From NCBI GenBank assembly GCA_019429305.1, contig JAHYIR010000017.1, positions 1 to 41,549 of the forward strand: a stretch of 41,549 nt of DNA, in the 5' to 3' direction. The notes beneath the pieces are model-generated. The model searched no databases. It was not told the origin of the DNA and saw nothing but the letters and a program-made list of their open reading frames with translations. Positions 1 to 37,980 of this stretch are shown here, piece after piece. The position numbers were made by a program, and so were the translations under genes. The stretch comes from Candidatus Cloacimonadota bacterium. Lineage in GTDB: Bacteria; Cloacimonadota; Cloacimonadia; Cloacimonadales; JAJBBL01. The first letter of the stretch is position 1. The number at the start of each line of letters is the position of its first letter.

Positions 1-1191
1 ACTCAATCCCTCGCTCCCTCGCCCCTCAGCCCTTTGCTCTTCGCTCTCAGCCCTATGCTCTTCGCTCTCAGCTCTTTGCTCTTCACTCTTCGCCCTCTGC
101 TCTCCGCCCTCAGCTCTCTGCTCAACCCCATATCCAAATCTCAGGTTTCTGATCTCAATATTACCTTTCAATTCAGTAATGTTAGTATCTACATCTCCAT
201 CAACTATCTCTTCCGGAGTATCTAATATTTTGTTAATTCTTTTCAGGGAAGCAGTTCCTCTTTGATATAGTTCCACGATCCAACCGATAGCTATCATAGG
301 CCAAACGAGCATACTCAAATAAGCATGAAAAGCGATAAATTCTCCGATCGAGATCTCATTTCTGATAGCTGCTCTACCGCCAAAAACCAGCACAATGATC
401 ATACTGATACTAATAACAAAGCCCAGAAATGGGTGAAAAAGACCGGATAATTTAGCCATTTTGACATTGTTTTGCTGATATTCATAGGAGAACTCATTCA
501 TTTTATTAAGTTCGGTTCTCTCCTGCCCAAAAACCTTCACTACCCTGATCCCTGAGATGCTTTCCTGAACCATCCCTGAAAGAGCAGAAAATGAACTCTG
601 GACTTTTGTGAATTGCCGGTGCATTTTTCTTCCGAAATAGGAGATTGCCAAAGATAAGATCGGGAGTGGTAAAATAGCATAGATAGTTAATCTCAGATTT
701 ATGGTTACCATAAAAACGATCGATGCCAGAGTTAGAATGATAATATCTGCAGCAGCCACAAAACCGATACCAAATAACATTCTGATGGCATTCATATCAT
801 TTGTGGAATGAGCCATCAGATCACCTATTTTTGCTTTGTTGAAGAAATTTTGGGCTAACTTTATCAAGTGTTCATAAAAATTTTGTCTCAATCCCCGTTC
901 TATGATCCAGGAAGTTCCGATTATCAAGATCCGCCAATAATAACGCATCAGTGCGATCACACCGGACATCAGAAATATCAGCAACATATAGCCGGCTAAA
1001 TGTCTTTGTGTGAATCCCTCCTTCCCTAAACTGTCAATAGCAACCTGCATCACTTTAGGGATGAGCAGTTGTACCGCATCCACAATAATAAGAACAATAA
1101 CACCCAGTATGAGAAACTTAAGATTCTGTTTTAAATAGGGAACTATTCTGGAAAATAACTTTTTTTGTTCACCCTTGTTTGTCTCTTTCAA
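1..1191 (-). CDS. ABC exporter, fused permease and ATPase (MsbA/lipid-export type), C-terminus cut by window edge
   Basis: Half-transporter of the ABC exporter class: an N-terminal six-helix membrane domain (about residues 15-310) followed by the start of the ATP-binding domain, whose first strand reads GNIEIRNLRFGYG near residues 346-358. I translated the minus strand continuously from 1191 to the window edge and found no stop. The start is taken as TTG at 1191, with GGA about 9 nt upstream; no ATG fits better. Family features seen are the coupling-helix region around VQESISGIRVVKVFGQE and the typical linker before the ATPase. Walker A, signature and Walker B lie beyond the window. The odd part is that the loop after FGYG is replaced by a run of charged heptapeptides (EQRAESE-like) encoded by a heptanucleotide tandem array (positions 23-120). 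Family members normally pass through a short loop here into the next strand. The substrate is unknown; lipid or drug export are the usual roles. Confidence 0.85.
   Translation of the reverse strand, partial: MKETNKGEQKKLFSRIVPYLKQNLKFLILGVIVLIIVDAVQLLIPKVMQVAIDSLGKEGFTQRHLAGYMLLIFLMSGVIALMRYYWRILIIGTSWIIERGLRQNFYEHLIKLAQNFFNKAKIGDLMAHSTNDMNAIRMLFGIGFVAAADIIILTLASIVFMVTINLRLTIYAILPLPILSLAISYFGRKMHRQFTKVQSSFSALSGMVQESISGIRVVKVFGQERTELNKMNEFSYEYQQNNVKMAKLSGLFHPFLGFVISISMIIVLVFGGRAAIRNEISIGEFIAFHAYLSMLVWPMIAIGWIVELYQRGTASLKRINKILDTPEEIVDGDVDTNITELKGNIEIRNLRFGYGVEQRAEGGEQRAKSEEQRAESEEHRAESEEQRAEGRGSEGLS
23..120 (-). repeat. Heptanucleotide tandem array inside the ABC exporter ATPase domain (14 units)
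   Basis: Fourteen consecutive 7-bp units in perfect phase on the plus strand, of the form CYCTNNG (for example CTCTTCG, CTCTCAG, CCCTCAG). On the coding strand they read like CGAAGAG or CTGAGAG. Because three units make 21 bp, the array encodes a seven-residue protein repeat (EQRAKSE, EQRAESE, EHRAESE). The reading frame stays open through it. The unit is the same purine-rich type seen in the Wzx gene (32157) and at the end of a GT4 gene (36920). Confidence 0.9.
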
Positions 1192-1236: not shown

Positions 1237-1304
1237 CTCCCAATGGACTTGCTAATCCTTCCACTGGCTTTTCCCGTAACACGTAACCCATAACACGTAA
1301 CACC
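1237..1304 (-). repeat. Composite repeat copy 1: four heptamers plus CCAATGG hairpin
   Basis: On the minus strand this follows the stop codon of the 236-aa gene at once: a short A-run, then four heptamers (GTGTTAC, GTGTTAT, GGGTTAC, GTGTTAC; 1276-1303), then GGGAAAAG and a hairpin head, CCAGTGG - loop with TAGCAAG - CCATTGGGAG. The stem pairs imperfectly, with one G-T type mismatch. The same composite occurs at 4402-4467 (same heptamers in the same order) and at 35668-35739 (different heptamers, same head). Together with a few bases on either side it fills the gap between the 236-aa gene and the ABC exporter. Confidence 0.85.
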
Positions 1305-3617: not shown

Positions 3618-3638
3618 ATTTACTCCTGATTTTTTTTC

Positions 3639-3659
3639 TCACAACTCACAACTCACAAC
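3639..3659 (-). repeat. Heptamer array after the CoA-transferase A stop (3 units)
   Basis: Three exact TCACAAC units on the plus strand, which read GTTGTGA three times on the coding strand. The stop TGA of the upstream gene (3664-3666) is followed directly by an A-run and then the array, and GGAG of the next gene comes 20 bp later. A near-identical block (TGA, A-run, three GTTGTGA units) sits at 4348-4368, and a related one follows truA at 37954-37974. Confidence 0.85.
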
Positions 3660-3663
3660 TTTT

Positions 3664-4320: not shown

Positions 4321-4347
4321 TAATTATTACCTCCTGATATTTTTTTC

Positions 4348-4368
4348 TCACAACTCACAACTCACAAC
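4348..4368 (-). repeat. Heptamer array upstream of CoA-transferase A (3 units)
   Basis: Three TCACAAC units (GTTGTGA on the minus strand), preceded on that strand by GTGAAAAA and followed by an A-run and AGGAGG. The layout matches the array at 3639-3659 including the flanks, so the two blocks are diverged copies of one longer segment of about 45 bp. Confidence 0.85.
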
Positions 4369-4401
4369 TTTTTCACCCCCTCGCACCCTCTTCTTGCTAC
4401 C

Positions 4402-4467
4402 CTCCCGATGGACTTGCTACTCTTACATTGGCTTTTCCCGTAACACGTAACCCATAACACGTAACAC
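4402..4467 (-). repeat. Composite repeat copy 2: four heptamers plus degenerate hairpin
   Basis: The heptamers at 4440-4467 are the same four units in the same order as copy 1 (plus strand GTAACAC, GTAACCC, ATAACAC, GTAACAC), followed on the minus strand by GGGAAAAG and a decayed hairpin head. The segment from GATGGACTTGCTA through the heptamers matches copy 1 nearly base for base. It lies between the IS left end and the CoA-transferase genes. Confidence 0.85.
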
Positions 4468-4551
4468 TTTTCCCCTTGCTATCCCTTCCTTAGGTTTTGT
4501 GGTGTACTGAAATAGTGGACTGTTTATTTGTACTTTTTTTTCATTAAATTA

Positions 4552-5352
4552 TCAAGCAGCATTATACACCTCTTGTGGAGTTTTATAGTTTAATGCAGCA
4601 TGGATGCGCCTATTATTATAATCATCTATGGCATTGTCAATCAATTCTCTTGCTCGTGCTTTACTCTGTACAATCCCTTTTAACTTATATTCATGTTTCA
4701 ATGTGTTAAAGAATCGTTCCATTTTAGCGTTGTCATAACAGTGATCTCTGCCAGTATAACTTAACTGAAAACCATTATTTTCAAGGGTCGATCTATATAT
4801 GTTAGAGCAATACTGAGAACCACGATCCGAATGATGTATGATACCATTTGTGGAAGAGACAGATTTAATTACCTTGCTAAGGCAGCATAATAAACTTTTA
4901 GCAGTAATATCTGTGCTCACTATATGAGAGATAATCTTACGTGAGTAGGCATCCATGATTGTCGATAAATAAACCATGCCATCAAGAGTTAATATATATG
5001 TAATGTCACTGAACCAAACCTGATGAACTGAAGTGATTTCAATATCCTTGACCAGATTTCTTGGTTGATATGGTATCCAGCCAGGTATAGTAGTCTTTAC
5101 TCTCCTATATCGTAGTGGTAGCATCATATTATGTCTCTGTAAAACCCTCCAAAGCTTGTCCCGACTTATCTGGTAGCCGTCTCTCTTCAGTTCTTGGAAG
5201 ATTTTCCTAACTCCATAAAACGAATGTTCCATACGTATCTTCCGCACACGAGATAGTACGTCATCTTCAAAGGCTAACTGAAGTGATCTCATTTTCAATT
5301 TCTTGTAATAACCGGACTTGCTCATACCAAAAAAACTGCAGATAGTGCTCAT
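4552..5352 (-). CDS. IS3-family transposase OrfB (DDE integrase core)
   Basis: Catalytic part of the IS transposase, 266 residues. An N-terminal helical region with YYKK and the HTH_21-type segment HSFYGVRKIFQELKRDGYQISRDK leads into the rve integrase core. The DDE triad is visible: Asp in VWFSDITYI, Asp in IIHHSDRGSQY, and Glu in NAKMERFF, with exactly 35 residues between the second Asp and the Glu, as in the D-D-35-E family. The ATG at 5352 is used here, but the frame stays open upstream towards orfA. The relation to orfA is unusual: orfB is in the +1 frame, while the canonical -1 slip would end at a TGA overlapping this ATG (see findings). Confidence 0.93.
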   Translation of the reverse strand: MSTICSFFGMSKSGYYKKLKMRSLQLAFEDDVLSRVRKIRMEHSFYGVRKIFQELKRDGYQISRDKLWRVLQRHNMMLPLRYRRVKTTIPGWIPYQPRNLVKDIEITSVHQVWFSDITYILTLDGMVYLSTIMDAYSRKIISHIVSTDITAKSLLCCLSKVIKSVSSTNGIIHHSDRGSQYCSNIYRSTLENNGFQLSYTGRDHCYDNAKMERFFNTLKHEYKLKGIVQSKARARELIDNAIDDYNNRRIHAALNYKTPQEVYNAA

Positions 5353-5374
5353 CGATGCTTTTGTTTTATTCTCT

Positions 5375-5767
5375 CTAAGACTCGTCTTTGCTCTGGGGAT
5401 AGATGTGAAAGTGCAGTTTTTTTTCTTCTTCGGTCAGTCTGGACTCTACTGTTTCAATATAACATTTCTGACATATGTTCTGGACAGTAAGTGCTGCCAA
5501 AGCCTGCTCAAGTTCACGGATTTTTTCGTCCTTGGCTTTGATAATATCCTTTTCATTCTTCATTTCAACCCTCACGACCTTTCTTATTAAATGGTTCTTA
5601 CCATATTTCTTGAGCCAGCCATAAATGGTGGCGCCACCATTTATCTCATAGATCTGTGATGCTTGTCGGATTGTCAACTTACCTTTTTCGATCTCATCTA
5701 CTACCTTTAACTTAAAAGTTTCACTGTAACGAAATAGAGTAGGTCTTTTACTAAACTGAGATTGCAT
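5375..5767 (-). CDS. IS3-family OrfA (helix-turn-helix DNA-binding protein)
   Basis: DNA-binding subunit of the insertion sequence, 130 residues from the ATG at 5767, which is preceded by GGAGG with 6 nt spacing. A longer ORF reaching 5830 starts outside the element and is rejected. The segment YSETFKLKVVDEIEKGKLTIRQASQIYEINGGATIYGWLKKYG is the transposase_8/HTH region (read in parts), followed by a leucine-zipper-like helix DEKIRELEQALAAL that in this family mediates multimer formation. An A8 run (5417-5424) near the 3' end is a likely slippage site. Confidence 0.88.
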   Translation of the reverse strand: MQSQFSKRPTLFRYSETFKLKVVDEIEKGKLTIRQASQIYEINGGATIYGWLKKYGKNHLIRKVVRVEMKNEKDIIKAKDEKIRELEQALAALTVQNICQKCYIETVESRLTEEEKKLHFHIYPQSKDES

Positions 5768-5816
5768 ATTATTCCTCCATTTTAGTCCACCTATTTCAGT
5801 ACAGTACATTTTTCTC

Positions 5817-5844
5817 TGTTCACTGCTCACTGATTACTGATCAC
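5817..5844 (-). repeat. Heptamer array after the kamE stop (4 units)
   Basis: Four units (plus strand TGTTCAC, TGCTCAC, TGATTAC, TGATCAC). On the kamE strand the order is stop TAA, a run of seven A, then GTGATCA, GTAATCA, GTGAGCA, GTGAACA. This is almost the same array as at 35674-35701, where it is attached to the hairpin head; here no head is seen before the IS end. Confidence 0.85.
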
Positions 5845-5851
5845 TTTTTTT

Positions 5852-6625: not shown

Positions 6626-6639
6626 ATCACCTTTTAATT

Positions 6640-6702
6640 TTACATTGTACATTCTACATTATACATTCTACATTATATATTCTACATTATATATTCTACA
6701 TT
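6640..6702 (-). repeat. Heptamer array across the kamD 3' end and the kamD-kamE gap (9 units)
   Basis: Nine consecutive AT-rich units in one phase (plus strand CTACATT, ATACATT, ATATATT, GTACATT variants). On the coding strand the last residues of KamD (NVEYIM) and its TAG stop (6682-6684) are encoded by the array, as would be the extra N-terminal residues of KamE if 6652 were its start. The array fills most of the space between the two genes. Confidence 0.9.
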
Positions 6703-8259
6703 ACTCCCAAAGAGCTCGGATTTCATCTTGTCCATAAAAGGATTAACATATTCTGTATCCTTAAAAAAGACACCCTCTAAGCCTCTTCCGGTATGCTCAC
6801 TTCTTTTTATCTCGGCAAAAGCACCTTCAGATAATGCCTGCATCAAACCAATCTCCTTAACATGTGACAGAAATTCGCTTGCCTCATCTAAAACCCTGTT
6901 AGCTCGTTGATTGATAAAACCATTTTCTTGCAAGATAAATTCATCAGGAAAACTTTTTACGGCTTTAAAAATATACTGGGCATTTTCTATAGCTAAGCCC
7001 CTATCCGCCAGATGAGGAGTATGAATTGCTTCTGTCATCATACCTAAAAGTTGAACACCTTGCCCGGTTATTTGGGCAACCATATTAAACATACCATTCA
7101 TTAAATAGGTTTTAAAAATATTCCCGGAAGCAAATCTGGTGGGTGGCATATACTTAACCGGAGAATCGGGGAAAAGAGTTTTAGTTAAGAATGCATGTGC
7201 AATCTCGTAAAGAACTGAATTCTCAATCTCAGGATCTATTTCAAAAGCATGTCCTAATCCCATCTTTTCAGGTCTAAGTCCCGACATTAGAGCAAATTGT
7301 TCATTTATCAATTGAGATGCTGTTACAGTATATGCAGATTCAATTGCATCAGATGTAGTCAGATAGTTATCTTCTCCGGTCTGGATCTCTATCCCGGCAT
7401 AGGCATTGATCATTCTTGAGAAATATTGATCTAAGAATGTGCGTTTCATATTTATATCACGGAAAAGAATTCCATACATTGCGTCATTTAGCATAATATC
7501 AAGACGTTCTAAAGCTCCCATTGCGGCAATTTCAGGCATACAGAGACCCGATGCATAATTAGTAAGTGATATATATTTCTCTACTTCTTCACCTACTTCG
7601 TCAAGTGCCTGTCTCATGATCCGAAAGTTTTCCTGAGTAGCATAAGTTCCACCAAATCCGGTGGTTGTTGCTCCAAAAGGAACATAATCCAACAAAGACT
7701 GAGCTGTTGAACGAATTACAGCAATGATGTCTGCACCCTGCCTTACTGCTGCTTGTGCTTGCACTACATCTTCATAGATATTTCCAGTGGCTACTATCAC
7801 ATAGATCGCCGGTTGGTTTCTTGGTCCATATTTAATATATGCATCTTCCCGTATACATCGTTGATCCCTGATCTTTTTCAATGTTAGGGAACTAACTTTT
7901 TCCAATTCTTCCAAGATCTTATCTGTTGGTTGAGCAGGCAAAGATGTCAGATCCAATTCTCCAGCTGCTACTTTTTCGGCAATCGCCTTAGCACTTGTTC
8001 CCTCAACTAACATACCGTTAGTAAGCCAGTAAGCAACTCCACGCGATAGAACATCTCTTACTCGTAAATGCTCTACCAGAAGATTAGGTAAAGGTTCTCC
8101 AGTTGGTAGAGCACCATCAACTCCCATCAATCTGGCTACAGTGCGTTCAATAGTTACTGAGCTGTTCTTTTCAATAAGCTCCTGGAAGGATATTGCTATA
8201 TCCCTTGCATATCCTCTTGCTTTATCTACTCTTTTTTTGTCGATACTTAATCTGATCAA
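6682..8259 (-). CDS. kamD: D-lysine 5,6-aminomutase alpha subunit
   Basis: Large catalytic subunit that, with KamE, forms the adenosylcobalamin/PLP-dependent lysine 5,6-aminomutase. It is 525 residues against about 516 for the Clostridium protein. Conserved stretches seen include RLMGVDGALPTGEPLPNLLVEH, IYVIVATGNIYEDVVQAQAAV, and the barrel segment TTTGFGGTYATQENFRIM (each read in short pieces). The start is TTG at 8259, supported by a GGGGG ribosome-binding site 6 nt upstream and by family alignment at KKRVDKARGYARDIA. A sigma70-like promoter lies at 8308-8335. The C-terminus is set by a heptamer array. It is the first gene of the minus-strand block and is transcribed divergently from glycan cluster 1. 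Confidence 0.95.
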   Translation of the reverse strand: MIRLSIDKKRVDKARGYARDIAISFQELIEKNSSVTIERTVARLMGVDGALPTGEPLPNLLVEHLRVRDVLSRGVAYWLTNGMLVEGTSAKAIAEKVAAGELDLTSLPAQPTDKILEELEKVSSLTLKKIRDQRCIREDAYIKYGPRNQPAIYVIVATGNIYEDVVQAQAAVRQGADIIAVIRSTAQSLLDYVPFGATTTGFGGTYATQENFRIMRQALDEVGEEVEKYISLTNYASGLCMPEIAAMGALERLDIMLNDAMYGILFRDINMKRTFLDQYFSRMINAYAGIEIQTGEDNYLTTSDAIESAYTVTASQLINEQFALMSGLRPEKMGLGHAFEIDPEIENSVLYEIAHAFLTKTLFPDSPVKYMPPTRFASGNIFKTYLMNGMFNMVAQITGQGVQLLGMMTEAIHTPHLADRGLAIENAQYIFKAVKSFPDEFILQENGFINQRANRVLDEASEFLSHVKEIGLMQALSEGAFAEIKRSEHTGRGLEGVFFKDTEYVNPFMDKMKSELFGSNVEYIM

Positions 8260-34541: not shown

Positions 34542-35648
34542 ATGAAGATCGCAATCAACTGCTGTTATTATGGCAAAACATCCGGAGGTATAAAGGAATA
34601 TATCTACAATCTGGTAATTAATCTTTTAAGGGAAGATAAGAAGAACAGCTATTTATTCTATGTTTCGATCGATGATCTTGATTATTGGATCGAAACCATG
34701 CCGGCAGAAGCAACATACAAGATCTTTCCCTTTAAGCGTAGACAGAAGATAAAGCGTGCTTTGTTGCAGCCTAACTTCTGGAAAAAAGAATATGAAATAG
34801 AAAAATTCGCTATATTTCATTCACCCTTCTTTCATGTTCCGTATATAGAGGGATGTAAAAAGATCATAACTGTCCACGATCTAAGATTCCGTAGATATCC
34901 TGGTAGTTATACCTTTTTTAGACGCATATATGTCAGACATGCTTTTCAAAGATCGCTCAAGATGGTTGATAAGATCATAACAGTATCAGAATTCACCAAA
35001 AAAGAGATCTTATCCTTCTACTCTTTTGATCCAAACCATATCATACCGATACACGAAGCAGTTGATCAAACAAGATTCAAGATCAGTTTTGATGATGAGC
35101 TATTACTCGAAAAGACCGGCTTAAAAAATAATTACCTGTTGACTGTAGGTCATTTGGAGCCACGCAAGAATTACCCTCTTCTGATCAAAGCAATAGAGGA
35201 ATTGAACAGAGATTCTGCTCATCAAATGACCTTGGTTATAGTCGGTAAGAAAAATTATAAGTATCAACCAACCCTAAGGGCGATTGATAAGGCGAAAAAT
35301 GTCAAATATCTGGACTTTGTTGATCATGAAACCTTATTGAGCTTGTATAAAAATGCCCTTCTCTTTATCTTCCCTTCTATATATGAAGGGTTTGGGTTTC
35401 CTCCATTGGAAGCAGCTCAGTTCGGTGTTCCTTCTGTAGTAAGCAATGTATCGAGTATTCCTGAGATCTGTGGAGATGGGGCTCTCTATTTCGATCCTTT
35501 CTCAAAAGAAGATCTGATCCGTGCCATTAAAGAAGCAATCGAAAAAAGAACAGAACTACAAAAGAAGGCAATCGCAAATCTGGAGAGGTTTTCATGGAAA
35601 TTGACAGCTAAAAAGACCAGCGAGTTATATAAAGAGTTGACTTCATAA
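34542..35648 (+). CDS. Glycosyltransferase family 4
   Basis: GT-B enzyme, 368 residues. N-terminal glycine motif YYGKTSGGIKEYIYNLV, acceptor-side HSPFFHVPY and ITVHDLRFRRYPGSY, and the donor-binding domain with LLTVGHLEPRKNYPLLIKA and the E-x7-E element YEGFGFPPLEAAQFGVPSVVSN. This profile (HDLRF, GHLEPRKN) resembles mannosyl- or rhamnosyl-transferases of the GT4 MtfB/WbdA group. Its stop codon is followed at once by CCACAGATGGACACAGATG and then the third composite repeat. Sugar specificity is not readable. Confidence 0.88.
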   Translation: MKIAINCCYYGKTSGGIKEYIYNLVINLLREDKKNSYLFYVSIDDLDYWIETMPAEATYKIFPFKRRQKIKRALLQPNFWKKEYEIEKFAIFHSPFFHVPYIEGCKKIITVHDLRFRRYPGSYTFFRRIYVRHAFQRSLKMVDKIITVSEFTKKEILSFYSFDPNHIIPIHEAVDQTRFKISFDDELLLEKTGLKNNYLLTVGHLEPRKNYPLLIKAIEELNRDSAHQMTLVIVGKKNYKYQPTLRAIDKAKNVKYLDFVDHETLLSLYKNALLFIFPSIYEGFGFPPLEAAQFGVPSVVSNVSSIPEICGDGALYFDPFSKEDLIRAIKEAIEKRTELQKKAIANLERFSWKLTAKKTSELYKELTS

Positions 35649-35667
35649 CCACAGATGGACACAGATG

Positions 35668-35739
35668 AAAAAAGTGATCAGTAATCAGTGAGCAGTGATC
35701 AGGAAAAACCAATGGGAAAAATAGCAAGCCCATTGGGAG
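35668..35739 (+). repeat. Composite repeat copy 3: four heptamers plus perfect CCAATGGG hairpin
   Basis: A6 run, then GTGATCA, GTAATCA, GTGAGCA, GTGATCA (35674-35701), then GGAAAAA and the hairpin CCAATGGG (35709-35716), a 12-base loop ending TAGCAAG, CCCATTGG (35729-35736), then GAG. The head matches copies 1 and 2 while the heptamers match the array after kamE, so heads and tails are exchangeable. In front lies CCACAGATGGACACAGATG. It follows one GT4 gene and precedes another by 40 bp. Confidence 0.88.
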
Positions 35740-35779: not shown

Positions 35780-36973
35780 ATGCCTAAGATAAAGATCCTG
35801 CGGATCATAACAAGATTGAACATCGGGGGACCGGCAATACATACGGTCCTTTTAACAGCATACCTTAACAATGAGCAGTTTGAATCTCATCTGGTAGCGG
35901 GAAAGATCGAAGATAATGAAGCAGATATGTCATACTTTGCAGCCCAACATGACGTTACCCCTATTTATGTTAAAAAAATGAGCCGTGAACTGAGATTCTT
36001 ACAGGATTGGCACGCTTTTATCGACATCTTCCGGATAATCAAGAAAATAAAACCGGATATAGTTCATACCCATACTGCAAAAGCGGGCATGTTGGGGAGA
36101 TCAGCTGCTATCCTGCTGAGAGTACCAATAATAATCCATACCTTTCATGGGAACGTGTTCCGAGAATATTTCGGTAAGCTGAAAACCTGTTTATTTATCT
36201 TCATTGAAAGAGCCCTGGCTCACTTTACCACTAAGATAATCGCTATCAGCCAGCAACAGAAGAATGAGCTCATTGCTTATAAAATTGCTAGTGAGAAAAA
36301 AATAGCGGTGATCAATCTCGGTTTTCAGTTAGATAGTGTTATTCCATCGACAAGAGATCGTAATAAATTCAGAAGTAGATACAACATCCCTGCTGACGGA
36401 GTACTTATCGGTATTGTTGGAAGATTAGTGCCCGTTAAGAATCATCAGCTCTTTTTAGAGATCGCTCACGAATTGCTGCAAAAGAGAGACATCTATTTTG
36501 CCATTATAGGTGACGGAGAACTCAGAGAGAGTCTTGAAGAGGAGATCAAGAAGAGGAATATTGCTCATAGAGTTTTAATTACCGGATTTATTGAAGATCT
36601 TAAGCCGGTCTATTCAGATCTTGATCTGGTTTTGTTGACCTCAAACAATGAAGGTACACCGGTTGCTGTCATAGAAGCCATGGCTTGTCAAAAGATAGTG
36701 ATGTCAACAAAAGTCGGCGGGGTTGAAGATCTGATCATTCATGGAGTCAATGGATTCATCTTCCCACCTAAAGAAAAAGAGGGATTTGTAAAAGAGATCG
36801 CTAACTGGCTCCATCATCCTGAACAATATCAAAATATAGGATCAGAAGCTTATCGATCAGTCATAGAAAAGTTTTCTTTAGAGACACTAATAAACAATAT
36901 CAAAGCTCTCTATGAAGAACTAAGGGCTAAGAGCGAAGAGCTAAGGGCGAAGGGCGAAGGGCGAAGAGGATGA
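35780..36973 (+). CDS. Glycosyltransferase family 4 with repeat-derived C-terminus
   Basis: GT-B enzyme, 397 residues, similar in motif layout to the GT4 at 11735: RLNIGGPAIHTVLL, VHTHTAKAGMLGRSAAI, HTFHGNVFREYF, IVGRLVPVKNH, IIGDGELRESL and the E-x7-E element NNEGTPVAVIEAMACQKIVMS. GCAGGA lies just before the ATG. The last 17 residues, a charged repeat of the type ELRAKSE, are encoded by seven heptamers (36920-36968) and are not part of the family; the normal domain ends around LINNIKALYEE. The same array supplies the ribosome-binding region of the next gene, whose ATG is 6 bp downstream. Confidence 0.9.
   Translation: MPKIKILRIITRLNIGGPAIHTVLLTAYLNNEQFESHLVAGKIEDNEADMSYFAAQHDVTPIYVKKMSRELRFLQDWHAFIDIFRIIKKIKPDIVHTHTAKAGMLGRSAAILLRVPIIIHTFHGNVFREYFGKLKTCLFIFIERALAHFTTKIIAISQQQKNELIAYKIASEKKIAVINLGFQLDSVIPSTRDRNKFRSRYNIPADGVLIGIVGRLVPVKNHQLFLEIAHELLQKRDIYFAIIGDGELRESLEEEIKKRNIAHRVLITGFIEDLKPVYSDLDLVLLTSNNEGTPVAVIEAMACQKIVMSTKVGGVEDLIIHGVNGFIFPPKEKEGFVKEIANWLHHPEQYQNIGSEAYRSVIEKFSLETLINNIKALYEELRAKSEELRAKGEGRRG
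36920..36968 (+). repeat. Heptamer array at the 3' end of the GT4 gene (7 units)
   Basis: Seven units (CTAAGGG, CTAAGAG, CGAAGAG, CTAAGGG, CGAAGGG twice, CGAAGAG) in perfect phase, ending in GATGA where the stop TGA (36971-36973) occurs. The AGAGGAT at its end is also the likely ribosome-binding site for the GT2 gene at 36980. Confidence 0.92.
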
Positions 36974-37906: not shown

Positions 37907-37953
37907 AAAAAATGCTTCGTCAGATATTTAAAGCTAACTATCTTACTCCCCCC

Positions 37954-37974
37954 TCACGACTGACAACTCACAAC
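37954..37974 (-). repeat. Heptamer array after the truA stop (3 units)
   Basis: On the truA strand: stop TGA, an A-run, then GTTGTGA, GTTGTCA, GTCGTGA and a degenerate GGGGGGA. The junction from stop through the first unit is almost the same as after the CoA-transferase A gene (3666), although the genes are unrelated. Confidence 0.8.
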
Positions 37975-37980
37975 TTTTTT

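What the first reader, a model, noticed from the sequence alone, without database searches (positions are those of the whole stretch)
35668..35739. Composite repeat: exchangeable heptamer tail joined to a conserved hairpin head
Three copies (1237-1304 and 4402-4467 on minus, 35668-35739 on plus) share the order A-run, four heptamers, GG(G)AAAA, then a CCAATGG - loop with TAGCAAG - CCATTGGGAG hairpin. Copies 1 and 2 carry identical GTGTTAC-type heptamers; copy 3 carries GTGATCA-type heptamers that elsewhere (after kamE) occur without the head. The head is conserved and the tail is swapped, which suggests a modular element of about 70 bp and not simple duplication. The stem is perfect (8 bp) in copy 3 and decayed in copies 1 and 2.
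Basis: seen in the sequence. Interest (0 to 1): 0.85.

Follow-up and report, generated by a model that had tools for sequence, protein, structure and literature searches.

The report
Linker-joined mosaic of short tandem repeats
Between many genes of this bacterium lie patchworks of short repeat blocks, mostly 7 or 10 letters long, joined by one recurring 19-20-letter connector; the same connector is attached to at least ten different blocks, so the patchworks seem to be built and rearranged block by block, with the connectors as seams.

Summary
The "head" TAGCAAG-N-CCATTGGGAG has 100 copies in the own genome (up to 3 mismatches; 6 for the reversed pattern). It is not a hairpin module. It is two tandem copies of a linker, CCNNNGGRAG-N3/4-AGCAAG: 150 strict copies against 1 scrambled control in 333 kb, spacer always 3 or 4. 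The linkers join blocks of different tandem repeats (7-mers such as CAGTNAT, TAGYTAY, GTTACGT; a CCACGGATGG 10-mer) and hairpin pieces in a partly fixed order. Head and tail are exchangeable: one identical 27-bp tail is followed by five different linkers, and one head follows at least ten tail types. The hairpin has no covariation support. The "headless" heptamers after kamE belong to copy 2's array, split by an IS3 element. Seven relatives have kamE and the CoA-transferase gene 1-81 bp apart; here the gap is 1,531 bp, so this array is an insertion. Tandem duplications (98 bp, one mismatch) begin and end inside linkers. The linker is absent from 104 other genomes of the order, whereas the tails recur there. 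No RAYT, reverse transcriptase or integron integrase was found. Most likely: non-coding repeat mosaics that invade gene junctions and rearrange at their linkers.

The parts
35646..35667 (+). Module E remnant (10-bp period), TAACCACAGATGGACACAGATG; its TAA is the stop codon of the upstream glycosyltransferase gene 34542-35648
   Evidence: sequence, ORF ends; own-genome E copies
35673..35702 (+). Module A of copy 3: four CAGTNAT heptamers
35709..35728 (+). Linker L1 of copy 3: CCAATGGGAA-AAAT-AGCAAG
35730..35739 (+). Linker L2 of copy 3, first half: CCATTGGGAG
1275..1303 (-). Module C of copy 1: GTTACGT-type heptamers
1248..1267 (-). Linker L1 of copy 1: CCAGTGGAAG-GATT-AGCAAG
1237..1246 (-). 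Linker L2 of copy 1: CCATTGGGAG
5816..5845 (-). Module A of the copy 2 array, directly after the kamE stop codon
4503..5803 (-). IS3-family insertion sequence that splits the copy 2 array (ends TGTACTGAAATAGG / CTATTTCAGTACA; transposase ORFs 5375-5767 and 4552-5352)
4475..4494 (-). Linker of the split module A: CCTAAGGAAG-GGAT-AGCAAG
4439..4467 (-). Module C of copy 2
4413..4431 (-). Linker L1 of copy 2: CCAATGTAAG-AGT-AGCAAG
4393..4411 (-). Linker L2 of copy 2: CCATCGGGAG-GGT-AGCAAG (complete linker)
4347..4369 (-). Module R: GTTGTGA heptamers, last block of the copy 2 array before the CoA-transferase gene

Best explanation
The element is one block of a family of non-coding intergenic mosaics. 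A mosaic is a row of short modules, mostly in the same orientation. Each module is a 25-50 bp stretch of tandem 7-, 8- or 10-mers, or a short hairpin piece, and ends in a linker CCNNNGGRAG-N3/4-AGCAAG. Shown: the modular order, the exchange of tails and heads, an ancestral tight gene junction into which one array was later inserted, and tandem duplications whose ends lie in linkers. Inferred: modules spread as copied pieces, by recombination or replication slippage with template switching at the near-identical linkers. They settle at gene ends in operons, where they are tolerated and often supply the stop codon. The linkers are therefore seams where blocks are gained, lost and swapped. No dedicated enzyme is needed for this, and none was found. 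The tails are more widely spread, and so probably older, than the linker.
For: 150 strict linkers against 1 scrambled control in 333 kb, spacer 3 (93) or 4 (57) and never otherwise. Syntax: the 10-mer module E precedes CCAGCGG linkers in 31 of 34 cases against 11 of 116 other linkers (p 1.5e-19); CCATTGG follows another linker in 38 of 38. Tail exchange. Empty site: kamE and the CoA-transferase gene are 1-81 bp apart in seven relatives, 19 bp in the only same-family genome, and 1,531 bp apart here. Tandem duplications begin and end in linkers: two 98-bp units with one mismatch, 208/210-bp units, and a 99-bp unit. Ends of 784 repeated segments fall in linkers for 44.5% (3' ends) and 34% (5' ends) against 28% for random placement, maximum 32% in 200 trials. 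Mostly uniform orientation within an intergenic region. The head is absent from 104 other genomes of the order, while tails A and E occur in 5 of 99 and 15 of 107 genomes searched (tallies). No Y1 transposase/RAYT, no reverse transcriptase; the only tyrosine recombinases look like XerC and XerD.
Against: Only one empty site was found; copy 3 has no syntenic relative. The enrichment of breakpoints in linkers is modest, and part of it follows from linkers being alike everywhere. Copies that spread between distant loci need a donor-to-target step that local recombination does not explain. The fixed 3/4 spacer and the dependence of NNN on the neighbouring module look more ordered than random exchange would give. 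DDE transposases were not surveyed genome-wide. The genome is a draft in 52 contigs, several of which end inside arrays.
Confidence: 0.6

Rival explanations
1. The linker is the site of a dedicated, still unknown recombination or transposition system that inserts non-coding mini-cassettes one by one in a fixed orientation, as an integron does with gene cassettes.
For: Cassette-site-cassette rows of one orientation; linker with fixed spacer; blocks of identity tend to start at AGCAAG and stop at RAG, on either side of the variable spacer; NNN depends on the cassette.
Against: No integron integrase: the two tyrosine recombinases found score best as XerD and XerC and far below the integron-integrase cut-off. 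No Y1 transposase or reverse transcriptase. Cassettes carry no genes and no conserved fold was seen.
Confidence: 0.13
2. The arrays are kept because they act at gene ends: stop codons in several frames, separation of genes in operons, or effects on mRNA 3' ends or on translation of the next gene, as proposed for TAACTGA repeats of Beggiatoaceae.
For: Arrays often begin at or inside the stop codon of the upstream gene. CAGTNAT arrays contain stops in all six frames. Co-directional intergenic regions carry arrays mainly in gene orientation, 30 against 13, p 0.014. E modules abut stop codons in relatives, and CAGTNAT arrays lie next to gene ends in viral contigs.
Against: Module C has no forward stop in any frame, and E, T and R lack stops in at least one forward frame. 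Nearly a third of the co-directional regions are in the opposite orientation, and arrays occur in divergent regions too. The tightly spaced kamE junction of relatives has no array.
Confidence: 0.15
3. The head is an RNA hairpin (terminator, processing site or protein-binding site).
For: Copy 3 folds well, -12.3 kcal/mol, z -2.9, and copy 1 moderately.
Against: Full inner pairing in 5 of 55 copies, shuffle mean 5.2; no covariation; no T-run after it; no Rfam match except a tRNA elsewhere in the window.
Confidence: 0.05
4. REP/BIME/REPIN-type palindromic repeats moved by a RAYT (TnpA-REP) transposase.
For: High copy number, intergenic, composite.
Against: No palindrome supported by covariation, not in alternating orientation, and no Y1_Tnp match in a genome that is 99.9% complete.
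Confidence: 0.03

Closest known systems
Heptamer direct repeats: TAACTGA repeats of Beggiatoaceae, Cyanobacteria and Bacteroidetes (MacGregor 2015, PMC4679880); STRR heptamers of cyanobacteria (from memory: Mazel et al. 1990)
   Same: Intergenic tandem 7-mers, several unit types mixed in one region, often next to start or stop codons, patchy and wide distribution. Module A (CAGTNAT) includes CAGTTAT, the reverse complement of the TAACTGA register.
   Different: Here the heptamer blocks are recurrent modules with their own linker, joined in an order to a 10-mer module and to hairpin pieces; no linker is described in the sections of PMC4679880 that I read.
Bacterial interspersed mosaic elements and REPINs (PMC2817692, PMC3116915)
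   Same: Composite, high-copy, intergenic mosaics.
   Different: No palindromic REP unit, no alternating orientation, no RAYT.
Integron gene-cassette arrays (general knowledge)
   Same: Rows of one orientation in which each cassette ends in a recurrent site.
   Different: No genes in the cassettes, no integron integrase, no conserved fold of the site; scattered over many loci.
MITEs (general knowledge)
   Same: Small, non-coding, inserted between genes.
   Different: No terminal inverted repeats and no target-site duplication seen.

Membership tests
Heptamer tandem repeats (STRR / TAACTGA type) | Tandem direct 7-bp units in intergenic DNA | tested here: met
   TRF arrays of period 7 in the window and in own-genome arrays
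Heptamer tandem repeats (STRR / TAACTGA type) | Unit TAACTGA or its register | tested here: inconclusive
   Module A is CAGTNAT; CAGTTAT units (reverse complement of ATAACTG) occur in some copies, e.g. C1:312783; most units are CAGTGAT or CAGTAAT
BIME / REP / REPIN | Palindromic REP unit | tested here: not met
   no covariation, full stem in 5 of 55
BIME / REP / REPIN | Units in alternating orientation | tested here: not met
   linkers mostly in one orientation per region, with at most one or two switches
BIME / REP / REPIN | RAYT (Y1 transposase) in the genome | tested here: not met
   PF01797: no match
Integron cassette array | IntI-type tyrosine recombinase | tested here: not met
   only XerD-like and XerC-like proteins; integron model 122 and 116 bits against a cut-off of 265
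Integron cassette array | Cassettes with an ORF and a folding attC site | tested here: not met
   blocks of 25-50 bp without genes; no conserved fold
MITE | Terminal inverted repeats and target-site duplication | tested here: inconclusive
   none seen by eye at copies 1-3; only one empty site available, too diverged to show a duplication
Structured RNA element | Compensatory changes in the stem | tested here: not met

The most novel reading that the evidence does not exclude
A dedicated, enzyme-driven system that assembles non-coding repeat cassettes at gene junctions through a species-specific seam (CCNNNGGRAG-N3/4-AGCAAG), with the same pool of repeat cassettes shared by distant bacteria and each lineage using its own connector.
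Probability: 0.12. Interest if true: 0.85.

Novelty: new variant of a known kind. Interest (0 to 1): 0.55.

Why it matters
Heptamer repeats recur in unrelated bacteria and in viral contigs, and how they spread is not known. This genome gives a handle: a connector that marks where each repeat block begins and ends, an identified ancestral junction, and young duplications. Within the genome the head is constant and the tails are swapped; across genomes the tails recur and the head is missing. Strain comparison could therefore measure block gain, loss and exchange directly.

Tried and rejected
Hairpin or covariation model of the head: rejected. Rfam: only a tRNA elsewhere in the window. RAYT, reverse transcriptase, integron integrase: none. 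Orthologous linker in relatives: none in 104 genomes with a profile; the exact 18-mer in a scan of one genome for each of 84,980 species hit four unrelated genomes, none seen in a repeat array and at or below the number I estimate for chance. Strict 3'-end orientation rule: suggested by one locus, but only 30 against 13. Universal stop-codon function: fails for module C. Empty site for copy 3: no syntenic relative. Literature searches by sequence string found no description of the modules. E module in plasmids and phages: no match.

Full report
Observation. The three copies exist as described. In the genome that holds the window (2.39 Mb, 52 contigs, 99.9% complete) the head pattern TAGCAAG-N-CCATTGGGAG occurs 100 times with up to three mismatches, against six for the reversed pattern. 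The GTTACGT tail has 18 places and the CAGTNAT tail 20. Copies cluster in intergenic arrays of up to about 1.5 kb.

Anatomy. I took 333 kb of stretches around these matches (window included). Each array is a row of modules: A CAGTNAT, B TAGYTAY, C GTTACGT, S TAGTAAG, T TATAATG, V GTGTTAG and GTTGTGA 7-mers, R GAGAGAC(T) runs, O GGTGAAAA (8-mer), E CCACGGATGG... (10-mer), and hairpin pieces. Modules end in a linker CCNNNGGRAG-N3/4-AGCAAG. There are 150 strict linkers and one match to a scrambled control; the spacer is 3 nt in 93 and 4 nt in 57 and never anything else, although the pattern allowed 0 to 6. A base-composition estimate gives 0.03 strict linkers by chance. There is syntax: E precedes CCAGCGG linkers in 31 of 34 cases against 11 of 116 for other linkers (p 1.5e-19); the CCATTGG linker follows another linker in 38 of 38 and leads to E in 25 of 38, against 27 of 112 for other linkers (p 7.5e-6).

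Hairpin. Copy 3 folds into a perfect 8-bp stem and copy 1 into one with a G-U pair; copy 2 does not fold that way. Across 55 linker pairs the inner three positions all pair in 5, with 5.2 expected after shuffling. On 28 aligned pairs, 82.7% of cells pair against 82.3% in shuffles, and covariation is 0.131 against 0.130. The stem is a by-product of two CCNNNGG linkers in tandem.

Exchange. The head is attached to at least ten tail types. The identical 27-bp C tail is followed by five different first linkers among six loci.

Copy 2 and the heptamers after kamE. The A heptamers at 5816-5845 start right after the kamE stop codon. They run into an IS3-family element (4503-5803; transposase ORFs). 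On its other side lies a canonical linker, CCTAAGGAAG-GGAT-AGCAAG, then tail C, L1, L2 and a GTTGTGA block before the CoA-transferase gene. It is one array split by an IS, not a headless tail. No clear target-site duplication of the IS was seen.

Empty site. kamE and the CoA-transferase gene are neighbours in seven relatives, with 1, 15, 15, 19, 20, 27 and 81 bp between them; the 19-bp case is the only genome of the same family. Here the gap is 1,531 bp. The array was thus inserted into a tight operon junction. For copy 3 no syntenic relative was found.

Rearrangement. C30 carries two tandem 98-bp units with one mismatch, each from AGCAAGTCCATTGG to the next AGCAAGTCCATTGG; C1:188 kb has units of 208 and 210 bp with the same borders; C1:189 kb has a 99-bp duplication. 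Among 784 pairs of repeated segments, 3' ends lie in linkers in 44.5% and 5' ends in 34%, against 28% by random placement, maximum 32%. Ends peak just before and after the N3/4 spacer. Part of this follows from linkers being conserved, so I count it as support and not as proof.

Position. Arrays often start at or inside the stop codon of the gene before them; in copy 3 the TAA of the E module is the stop codon of the glycosyltransferase gene. In co-directional regions arrays follow the gene orientation in 30 and oppose it in 13 (p 0.014), so orientation is a tendency and not a rule. Genes were called with a simple script, not a full annotation.

Distribution. A profile of the head finds 67 places in the own genome and none in 104 other genomes of the order. 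The exact 18-mer in a scan of 84,980 species hit four unrelated genomes, consistent with chance. In contrast the A tail occurs in four other genomes of the order and E in about fourteen. CAGTNAT arrays also lie on plasmids of Microcystis, Annamia, Mycetohabitans and Pantoea, in two Microcystis phages and in 66 stretches of viral contigs. One relative of another family (G068) has its own mosaics of E, GTTGTGA and GAGGGAG blocks with a different connector containing GCGCAAGTKATTGGGAT. Tails are widespread; connectors appear lineage-specific.

Enzymes. No Y1 transposase, no reverse transcriptase, and two tyrosine recombinases that score as XerD-like and XerC-like and not as integron integrases. 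Other transposase families were not surveyed across the genome.

Reading. The best-supported account is a non-autonomous mosaic of short repeat blocks that enters gene junctions and is rearranged at its linkers by general recombination or replication slippage. The transfer of blocks between distant loci remains unexplained. Known kin: heptamer repeats of cyanobacteria and Beggiatoaceae (PMC4679880); BIMEs by appearance only (PMC2817692).

Noticed in passing
window 6637-6703 (-): TATAATG/TAGAATG heptamers fill the junction between the gene upstream of kamE and kamE itself; the first residues of the longest kamE ORF are read from the array, and similarity to relatives begins only near residue 23-28, so the true start is probably further in.
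   Followed up: partly
window 36914-36968 (+): A heptamer array is translated as the C-terminus of the glycosyltransferase 35780-36973 (EELRAKSEELRAKGEGRRG): an array inside a gene end.
   Followed up: partly
window 3638-3660, 4347-4369, 37953-37975 (-): Further GTTGTGA heptamer blocks at gene junctions.
   Followed up: no
window 7-123: Dense 7/8/21-bp repeats at the contig end; several other contigs of this genome also end in arrays, probably assembly breaks.
   Followed up: no
L258, L260, L270, L286 and others (viral contigs): CAGTNAT arrays next to gene ends, followed after a short spacer by the same heptamers in inverted orientation, which would give long imperfect hairpins at gene ends.
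   Followed up: partly
L195, L197, L200 (G038, G065, G081): The 10-mer module E starts at the stop codon of the same gene in three species, and what follows E differs in one of them.
   Followed up: partly
L336-L347 (G068): A relative of another family has its own mosaics with connector GCGCAAGTKATTGGGATRCGG, which resembles AGCAAGTCCATTGGGAG; homology or chance is open.
   Followed up: partly
L071, L074, L069: Hairpin pieces TCATCCTGAGTRTTCTGCTG...GTATCGAAGGA and ATGCCCCGAATGGGGTATG...GGCACCC recur as modules inside the arrays.
   Followed up: no
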